Assembly (NCBI GenBank): GCA_017745295.1 | Contig: JAGHZR010000008.1 | Span: 1-64,000, forward strand | DNA length: 64,000 nucleotides | Reading direction: 5' to 3' | Origin: Novosphingobium sp. | GTDB taxonomy: Bacteria; Pseudomonadota; Alphaproteobacteria; Sphingomonadales; Sphingomonadaceae | In this document: in pieces, positions 50,421-51,252 of the stretch | How positions within the stretch are numbered: position 1 is the stretch's first letter | Layout: each line of letters begins with the position of its first letter | The notes under the pieces: model-generated | The model's input: only the letters and a program-made list of their open reading frames with translations | Told to the model about the DNA's origin: nothing | Databases searched by the model: none | Program-made: the position numbers and the translations under genes

Positions 50421-51252
50421 GCTGCGCGCCGCTCTGCTGCTGGCGAGTGCCCTGACGCTCGCCGGTTGCGGCGATTCGCAGCCTTCGTCGTCGTCCGGCC
50501 GCGAAATCGGCCTCTACACCAGCCTGCCGATCGTCTGGGGCGAGAGCGGCGACATCCGCGAATTGCTGGAGAAGGAACGCCCCCGGCACTGGGCGCTGGC
50601 CGTCCTGTCCTCCGCCGGGACGCTACATCCGCTCGACACGGTGACGGATCGGCTTCCCCGCGATGCTTTGCTGGTACTTGCCCAGCCGCGCCCGCTTTCG
50701 CCGCAGGAGAACGTCGCGCTGGACCGCTGGGTGCGGGAAGGGGGCAGGGTCCTGCTCTTTGCCGACCCGCTGCTGACGGCACCGACCCGCTATGCCCTGG
50801 GCGATCCGCGCAGGCCGCAGGACACCGTGCTGCTCTCGCCGATCCTTGCCCGCTGGGGCTTGCGGCTGGAATTCGATGAGGCCCAGCCCGCCGGTGAGCA
50901 CCTGGTCGAAACCGCGCTTGGCCCGCTTCCGGTGAACCTCGCCGGACGCTTCCGCCTTTTGGGGAATTCCGGGGAGAGCGCATCATCGCCGGGATTTTCG
51001 GGGAAACACGGGACGGTCGGGGATCACGGCGTCGATCCGGGAAAATCCGGGATCATGGGGACCAGCGGGGATGCACCCGGTCGCTGCCATCTGGAGGCGG
51101 AGGGCGTCCTTGCCCGCTGCTCGGTTGAAAAGGGGCGGGTTTTCGCGGTTTCCGATGCCGCCGTGCTCGAAAAATCGGACGATCCCGCTTCGATTGCTCT
51201 GCGCCGAAACATCTTCTCGACGCTGATAGGCTGGGCCGAAACCGGGGATTGA
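50389..51252 (+). CDS. GldG/DUF4350-like lipoprotein with low-complexity insertion
   Basis: lipobox ALTLAGCGD; VREGGRVLLFADPLLTAPTRY; insertion LLGNSGESASSPGFSGKHGTVGDHGVDPGKSGIMGTSGDAPGRC. Confidence 0.65.
   Translation: MPKRAALPFSKLRAALLLASALTLAGCGDSQPSSSSGREIGLYTSLPIVWGESGDIRELLEKERPRHWALAVLSSAGTLHPLDTVTDRLPRDALLVLAQPRPLSPQENVALDRWVREGGRVLLFADPLLTAPTRYALGDPRRPQDTVLLSPILARWGLRLEFDEAQPAGEHLVETALGPLPVNLAGRFRLLGNSGESASSPGFSGKHGTVGDHGVDPGKSGIMGTSGDAPGRCHLEAEGVLARCSVEKGRVFAVSDAAVLEKSDDPASIALRRNIFSTLIGWAETGD
50961..51071 (+). promoter_or_regulatory. phased GGGA box array (10 boxes) inside coding sequence
   Basis: GGGA starts at 50962, 50972, 50991, 51001, 51010, 51020, 51039, 51049, 51058, 51068 (steps 10,19,10,9,10,19,10,9,10). 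Confidence 0.6.

What the first reader, a model, noticed from the sequence alone, without database searches (positions are those of the whole stretch)
50961..51071. A ten-box GGGA array with the same ~9.5-bp phase hidden inside the upstream gene's coding sequence
GGGA starts at 50962, 50972, (gap), 50991, 51001, 51010, 51020, (gap), 51039, 51049, 51058, 51068: every step is 9-10 bp or twice that, so 10 of 12 phased positions are occupied over 110 bp. It lies ~500 bp upstream of mraZ, in opposite orientation to the promoter-proximal array, and encodes a Gly/Ser low-complexity insertion (LLGNSGESASSPGFSGKHGTVGDHGVDPGKSGIMGTSGDAPGRC) in a GldG-like lipoprotein. Because 9.5 bp is not a multiple of 3, protein-level repetition does not explain the period. 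Hypothesis: expanded MraZ operator (ring oligomer/looping between two arrays) that also codes for a linker, i.e. dual-use DNA.
Basis: partly seen in the sequence, partly recalled or inferred. Interest (0 to 1): 0.8.

Follow-up and report, generated by a model that had tools for sequence, protein, structure and literature searches.

The report
MraZ operator hidden inside a gene
Upstream of the bacterial cell-division gene cluster, a stretch inside a neighbouring protein gene is built from evenly spaced copies of the short DNA word that marks binding sites of the cluster's own regulator, MraZ; related species that lost that protein gene kept the words in place, so the stretch is very probably a regulatory site that happens also to encode protein.

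Summary
In detail: ten phased GGGA boxes (window 50962-51071) inside a DUF4350/GldG-like lipoprotein gene, 503-609 bp before mraZ, in a Novosphingobium genome. It is not chance. Keeping the protein fixed and shuffling synonymous codons never gave ten boxes in 100,000 trials. In 150 congeneric genomes, 34 of 35 four-box matches lie at mraZ. Against a same-length relative (L015), box bases are 40/40 identical and the other bases 53/98. In Novosphingobium sp. PhB165 the gene has decayed, yet six of six boxes keep the spacing of its sister, which still has the gene. So the array is selected as DNA, and the Gly/Ser insertion is its by-product.

It is one of three arrays. The promoter-proximal array C is class-wide. 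B lies in helical register with C: distances cluster every ~10.7 bp across 33 other-genus loci, which suggests looping or wrapping. Coding array A is specific to Novosphingobium subclades.

Most likely all three are MraZ operators that autoregulate dcw. MraZ binding and looping were not tested. I found no earlier report of distal, helically phased or coding-embedded MraZ arrays in the searchable papers.

The parts
50389..51252 (+). DUF4350 / GldG-like (ABC_transp_aux) lipoprotein gene, 287 aa, host of array A
   Evidence: Pfam PF14258 and PF09822 above cut-off; relatives named GldG/DUF4350 family; lipobox LTLAGCG
50962..51071 (+). Array A: ten GGGA boxes at 50962, 50972, 50991, 51001, 51010, 51020, 51039, 51049, 51058, 51068 inside the coding sequence
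50950..51084 (+). Lineage-specific Gly/Ser insertion encoded by array A (linker of 46 aa; 8-17 aa in relatives without it)
51245..51287 (+). Array B: distal GGGA boxes at 51245, 51256, 51284 around the stop codon of the DUF4350 gene; degenerate copy of the family-wide GGGA-N6-GGGA element
   Evidence: density peak at -350..-300 in all sets; pair spacing of exactly 10 bp in relatives; helical register with C in relatives
51389..51430 (-). Array C: promoter-proximal MraZ-type operator, five TCCC (GGGA on the minus strand) boxes at 51389, 51398, 51408, 51417, 51427
   Evidence: class-wide with 10-bp spacing
51571..52068 (+). mraZ, 165 aa, divergent alphaproteobacterial MraZ
   Evidence: Pfam PF02381 above cut-off; AF2 model pLDDT 94.4; the 16 PDB hits with E<=0.001 are all MraZ, some with promoter DNA; rsmH follows

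Best explanation
Array A is a distal array of MraZ boxes, a DNA-level regulatory element that has expanded inside a tolerant linker of the neighbouring GldG-like lipoprotein gene. It is the outermost part of a three-array operator for mraZ and the dcw operon: C at the promoter (class-wide, boxes on the minus strand), B at about -300..-350 (family-wide, boxes on the plus strand, in helical register with C), and A at -500..-610 (Novosphingobium subclades). Inferred mechanism: MraZ rings bind the boxes at one box per ~9.5-10 bp. A ring or rings bridging the inverted arrays B and C hold the promoter in a repressed loop or wrap. A raises the local MraZ concentration or offers further bridging contacts, which makes autorepression steeper. 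Shown here: existence, specificity, selection on the boxes rather than on the protein, and B-C helical phasing. Inferred: MraZ as the binder, repression, looping, and the contribution of A.
For: (1) The boxes have the word and the ~10-bp direct-repeat spacing of the proximal MraZ operator: in E. coli K-12, TGGGA-N5-TGGGG-N5-TGGGA sits just before mraZ, and 40 alphaproteobacterial families show 41 TCCC pairs at exactly 10 bp versus 0-4 at other distances up to 16. (2) A four-box pattern in 150 congeneric genomes hits mraZ in 34 of 35 cases. (3) Synonymous-codon nulls: 10 versus at most 8 in 100,000 trials; 84 boxes observed versus 32 expected over 16 loci; Gly codons in the linker GGG 81/GGC 12 versus GGC 162/GGG 108 outside. 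(4) Window versus L015: box bases 40/40, non-box 53/98 (P=4e-9); third codon positions 12/12 versus 15/34 (P=5e-4). (5) L018, where the DUF4350 gene is a remnant with stops, keeps all six boxes of its sister L016 at identical spacing: 24/24 box bases versus 36/64 others, P=2e-5. (6) Other lineages without the gene keep GGGA-N6-GGGA pairs at -420..-720 in non-coding DNA: 25 pairs at 10 bp, 0 at 9 or 11. (7) Array B is family-wide, and B-C distances are locked to helical turns in 33 other-genus loci (R=0.775, re-paired null 0.225, P<2e-4), while B-ATG and C-ATG are not and the spacers are not alignable. (8) MraZ here is a confident MraZ fold, nearest to MraZ structures in the PDB including promoter complexes.
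Against: No binding or expression data. Relatives are not independent, and the MraZ tree is short. In B-C phasing the choice of box can add multiples of ~10 bp, although the re-pairing control keeps that choice. A itself is not clearly phased with C. Single-locus synonymous tests are weak in the second clade (P 0.002-0.38). The A spacing (~9.6 bp) differs from B (~10.2 bp), so one geometry may not serve all three arrays. In Burkholderia cenocepacia MraZ bound only the proximal fragment (PMC7761207), so distal action has no precedent there.
Confidence: 0.75

Rival explanations
1. The arrays A and B are bound by a transcription factor other than MraZ that shares the GGGA word, and only C is the MraZ operator.
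For: A and B lie on the opposite strand to C; B has rigid 10-bp pairs while C has 9/10/11 steps; MraZ binding was not tested.
Against: Same core GGGA followed by A/T in all three arrays; the A-clade C array and array A share the ~9.5-bp step while most of the rest of the family has 10-bp steps; phased four-box arrays occur only at mraZ; B is in register with C.
Confidence: 0.13
2. The arrays are a decoy or sponge that titrates MraZ, or a roadblock that tunes readthrough from the upstream genes, rather than a looping operator.
For: Many boxes over more than 400 bp; box number varies between species; A lies in a gene transcribed towards mraZ.
Against: Helical register of B with C predicts physical contact, not titration; a few extra sites next to the promoter are a small sink.
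Confidence: 0.2
3. G-quadruplex elements: the regularly spaced G-runs fold into G4 in the coding strand or its RNA and act on transcription or translation, as proposed for the S. aureus mraZ promoter (PMC11796246).
For: Array A contains two stretches of four G3-4 runs with 5-7-nt loops; a published G4 claim exists for an mraZ promoter.
Against: The G-run is followed by A far more than elsewhere in the gene (115 A/51 C/11 T versus 21/120/33); spacing is a rigid 10 bp in isolated pairs that cannot form an intramolecular G4; L120-L122 use 19-bp steps, i.e. loops of about 15 nt; B-C helical register.
Confidence: 0.05
4. Protein-level repetition: a Gly/Ser-rich linker of 16-residue units is selected or slips as a repeat, and the DNA pattern is a by-product of codon usage.
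For: The array has a 48-bp (16-codon) super-period; the insertion is Gly-rich and its length varies in whole codons.
Against: Synonymous nulls; complete third-position conservation in boxes against about 45 percent outside them; survival in a decayed gene and in gene-less lineages; non-box identity between units at chance.
Confidence: 0.02

Closest known systems
Proximal MraZ operator of dcw (E. coli TGGG repeats; B. cenocepacia four 7-nt repeats with 3-nt spacers, PMC7761207; Mollicutes AAAGTG[T/G] repeats, PMC8475190)
   Same: Direct repeats of a short G-rich word at ~10 bp, upstream of mraZ; array C is this element.
   Different: A and B lie hundreds of bp upstream, in the opposite orientation to C; A is inside a coding sequence; B is in helical register with C.
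M. genitalium MraZ-promoter complexes (PDB 9r4j, 9sz7 '4 box promoter')
   Same: The window's MraZ model matches these MraZ chains; multi-box recognition by an MraZ oligomer.
   Different: One array with four boxes there; here up to ten boxes in A plus two more arrays.
Looping operators with a helically phased auxiliary operator (lac, gal, ara; from general knowledge)
   Same: Proximal and distal sites whose spacing is locked to whole helical turns.
   Different: Here the phasing is seen across genera as natural variation, with arrays of an AbrB-like ring regulator; looping is not shown.
G4 motif of the S. aureus mraZ promoter (PMC11796246)
   Same: Regular G-runs just before mraZ.
   Different: Here exact 10-bp phase, A after the G-run, isolated pairs and 19-bp steps argue for protein-binding boxes.

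Membership tests
MraZ operator | Direct repeats of a GGG-core box at ~10-bp steps | tested here: met
MraZ operator | Located upstream of mraZ and specific to that locus | tested here: met
   34 of 35 four-box matches in 150 genomes
MraZ operator | Promoter-proximal, non-coding position | tested here: not met
   A is at -503..-609 in a coding sequence; only C meets this. A is therefore called a distal MraZ-type array, not the classical operator
MraZ operator | Bound by MraZ and regulates dcw | not testable with these tools
   needs EMSA, footprinting, ChIP or a reporter
MraZ protein family | PF02381 and MraZ fold | tested here: met
   26.7 bits versus cut-off 23; Foldseek ranks 1-16 all MraZ
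MraZ protein family | NCBIfam equivalog cut-offs | tested here: not met
   best 60 bits versus cut-off 162: a divergent member; NCBI nevertheless names close relatives MraZ
MraZ protein family | DXXXR motif in each half | tested here: inconclusive
   second half DGSGR conserved; first half reads RDKNR where E. coli has DSKGR
Looping operator pair | Spacing locked to helical turns | tested here: met
   B-C R=0.775, P<2e-4; for A-C not clear
Looping operator pair | Physical loop and cooperative repression | not testable with these tools
   needs AFM, footprint periodicity, or half-turn insertion reporters
G-quadruplex element | Four G-tracts with short loops required at functional sites | tested here: not met
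   conserved B element is a two-tract pair; L120-L122 have ~15-nt loops; array A taken alone would satisfy the sequence rule

The most novel reading that the evidence does not exclude
MraZ rings in Sphingomonadaceae build a looped or wrapped repression complex over 150-500 bp from inverted, helically phased arrays. In Novosphingobium the complex recruited a neighbouring protein-coding gene, whose Gly/Ser insertion exists because the DNA serves as an operator.
Probability: 0.45. Interest if true: 0.85.

Novelty: new variant of a known kind. Interest (0 to 1): 0.77.

Why it matters
MraZ is among the most conserved bacterial regulators and heads the cell-division/cell-wall cluster, yet the work I found on how its ring reads DNA concerns one short proximal operator. 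Natural variation here (arrays of 2-10 boxes, two step lengths, helical phasing across genera, a gene-decay case) offers a ready-made test set for long-range MraZ action. It is also an unusually clean case of regulatory DNA writing the sequence of a protein segment: the insertion follows the operator, not the reverse.

Tried and rejected
Chance or composition: rejected by synonymous-codon nulls, 4-mer controls and genome scans. Recent tandem duplication of a 48-bp unit: non-box identity 8/32, i.e. chance. G-quadruplex as main explanation: rejected on pair geometry, following base and 19-bp arrays. Known RNA element in the region: no Rfam match. Sigma-70-type promoter and intrinsic terminator scans: nothing. 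Strict helical phasing of array A with B or C: weak and confounded. The first MraZ structure attempt with a shallow alignment was useless (pLDDT 49) and was replaced. Eraso et al. 2014 (E. coli MraZ) is not in the library; the E. coli operator was read from the K-12 genome instead. Genomes without a detected mraZ: several carry a divergent mraZ after all; one AT-rich genus (L227, L228) shows no mraZ and no phased boxes there, which is weak support only because of its base composition.

Full report
WHAT IS THERE. The window comes from a Novosphingobium genome (nearest named relatives N. panipatense, N. lindaniclasticum and sp. PhB57). Ten GGGA words start at 50962, 50972, 50991, 51001, 51010, 51020, 51039, 51049, 51058 and 51068. 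They lie in a 287-aa DUF4350/GldG-like lipoprotein gene (50389-51252), 503-609 bp before the mraZ start. mraZ and rsmH follow. The promoter-proximal array is five TCCC words (51389-51427). Between the two are three further GGGA words at 51245, 51256 and 51284.

NOT CHANCE. No unrelated 4-mer has a phased chain longer than 4 in the window, and runs of more than three boxes occur only at mraZ in the genome. Redrawing synonymous codons with the protein fixed gave at most 8 boxes and a chain of 6 in 100,000 trials. Over 16 loci that carry the coding array, 84 boxes are present where the proteins predict 32; glycine codons inside the linker are GGG 81, GGA 16, GGC 12, GGT 5, against GGC 162, GGG 108, GGA 36, GGT 34 outside. 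In 150 congeneric genomes the exact four-box pattern matches 35 times, 34 of them within 700 bp of mraZ; the control pattern matched once.

COMPARATIVE ANATOMY. I collected 172 regions upstream of mraZ in Sphingomonadaceae (112 from the genus, 60 from other genera; 167 after removing duplicates) and 40 from other alphaproteobacterial families. Array C (TCCC) is class-wide: 41 pairs at exactly 10 bp, 19 at 20 and 8 at 30, with almost nothing between. Array B is a plus-strand GGGA-N6-GGGA pair: 91 pairs at 10 bp in 114 loci, 3 at 9 bp, 3 at 11 bp, and one TCCC pair in the same zone. It peaks at -350..-300 in all Sphingomonadaceae sets and is absent from the rest of the class sample. Array A is abundant only in Novosphingobium subclades (46.5 GGGA per kb at -600..-500, against 8.3 and 5.2). 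In those loci the linker between 'VNLPGRF' and the next conserved cysteine is 21-46 aa instead of 8-17 aa. On an MraZ tree the coding insertion needs two changes; the shared GN/KSGE...GDA pattern also allows one gain with loss.

DNA, NOT PROTEIN. Three results separate the two. (a) The window and L015 have insertions of equal length; all 40 box bases agree against 53 of 98 others (P=4e-9), and at third codon positions 12/12 against 15/34 (P=5e-4), while the 60 codons before the insertion agree at 32/60 third positions. (b) L018 (sp. PhB165) is sister to L016 (N. clariflavum). In L018 the lipoprotein gene is a remnant with stops and no tblastn match, yet the array aligns without a gap and all six boxes keep the steps 10,19,10,27,10: 24/24 box bases against 36/64 others, P=2e-5. 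(c) Other lineages without the gene (L029, L030, L033, L034, L036, L037, L038, L040, L047, L048) carry GGGA-N6-GGGA pairs at -410..-710 in non-coding DNA; in gene-less congeners the -420..-720 zone has 25 pairs at 10 bp and none at 9 or 11. A distant gene-less clade (L120-L122) has five boxes at 19-bp steps.

HELICAL REGISTER OF B AND C. In 33 loci, mostly from different genera, with unalignable spacers (0 of 528 pairs by blastn), the B-to-C distances cluster at 99-101, 111-113, 123-124, 133-135, 142-146, 153-156 and 166. Phase coherence is 0.775 near 10.9 bp (0.705 at 10.5). Re-pairing B of one genome with C of another gives 0.225 on average (P<2e-4). B-to-ATG and C-to-ATG distances are not phased. 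The result holds at stricter thinning (n=46 and n=23, same call). Box choice can shift a distance by about one turn, but the re-pairing control keeps those choices. This is the pattern expected if the two arrays are held on the same face of the helix, as in looping or wrapping. For A the same test is weak.

WHO READS IT. The word, the ~10-bp step and the position before mraZ are those of known MraZ operators: E. coli K-12 has TGGGA-N5-TGGGG-N5-TGGGA there; B. cenocepacia MraZ binds four 7-nt repeats with 3-nt spacers in the proximal fragment and did not shift the -386..-136 fragment (PMC7761207); Mollicutes use AAAGTG[T/G] repeats (PMC8475190). The window's MraZ is divergent: below NCBIfam equivalog cut-offs, above the Pfam cut-off, with a confident AlphaFold model (pLDDT 94.4). 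The 16 PDB matches with E<=0.001 are all MraZ, several of them cryo-EM complexes with promoter DNA, one titled '4 box promoter'. Its first DNA-contact motif reads RDKNR where E. coli has DSKGR; the second (DGSGR) is intact. The C step is ~9.5 bp (9,10,9,10) in the clade that carries A but 10 bp (10,11,9) in most of the rest of the family, and A has the ~9.6-bp step of its own C. This concordance favours a common reader.

MECHANISM. Shown: the boxes are under selection as DNA; A, B and C belong to one locus-specific system; B and C are in register. Inferred: MraZ occupies all three, an MraZ ring bridges B and C to repress the mraZ promoter, and A adds sites that raise local MraZ or extend the complex. 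Rivals are another factor on A and B (0.13), a sponge or roadblock role (0.2, partly compatible), G-quadruplexes (0.05) and a protein-level repeat (0.02).

LIMITS. Related genomes are not independent; P values from single pairs are the cleanest. The box word was chosen from the finding, though it is also the known operator core. The paper library lacks most subscription journals, so absence of an earlier report is not proof.

Noticed in passing
51245-51430 and L125-L184: Family-wide pair of inverted arrays B and C whose spacing is locked to helical turns; arguably the larger discovery than the coding array itself.
   Followed up: yes
L120, L121, L122, -502..-426 from mraZ: Five GGGA boxes at exact 19-bp steps in intergenic DNA of a clade without the DUF4350 gene; the repeats also carry CCTGCCAC, possibly a second motif.
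   Followed up: partly
50389-51252 and the genus: The DUF4350 gene next to mraZ is absent from 31 of the congeneric loci, and its presence or absence changes 15 times on the MraZ tree.
   Followed up: partly
51571-52068: MraZ first-half DNA-contact motif is RDKNR instead of DXXXR in the clade, while the second half keeps DGSGR.
   Followed up: no
literature, PMC11796246: The G-quadruplex reported in the S. aureus mraZ promoter may overlap the MraZ boxes of that promoter; the two readings should be tested together.
   Followed up: no
L227, L228: A small AT-rich genus of the family keeps rsmH but shows no mraZ and no phased boxes upstream.
   Followed up: partly
50067-50420: Small 117-aa protein between the cysteine synthase-like gene and the DUF4350 gene, with no Pfam or NCBIfam match, also seen at related loci.
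   Followed up: no
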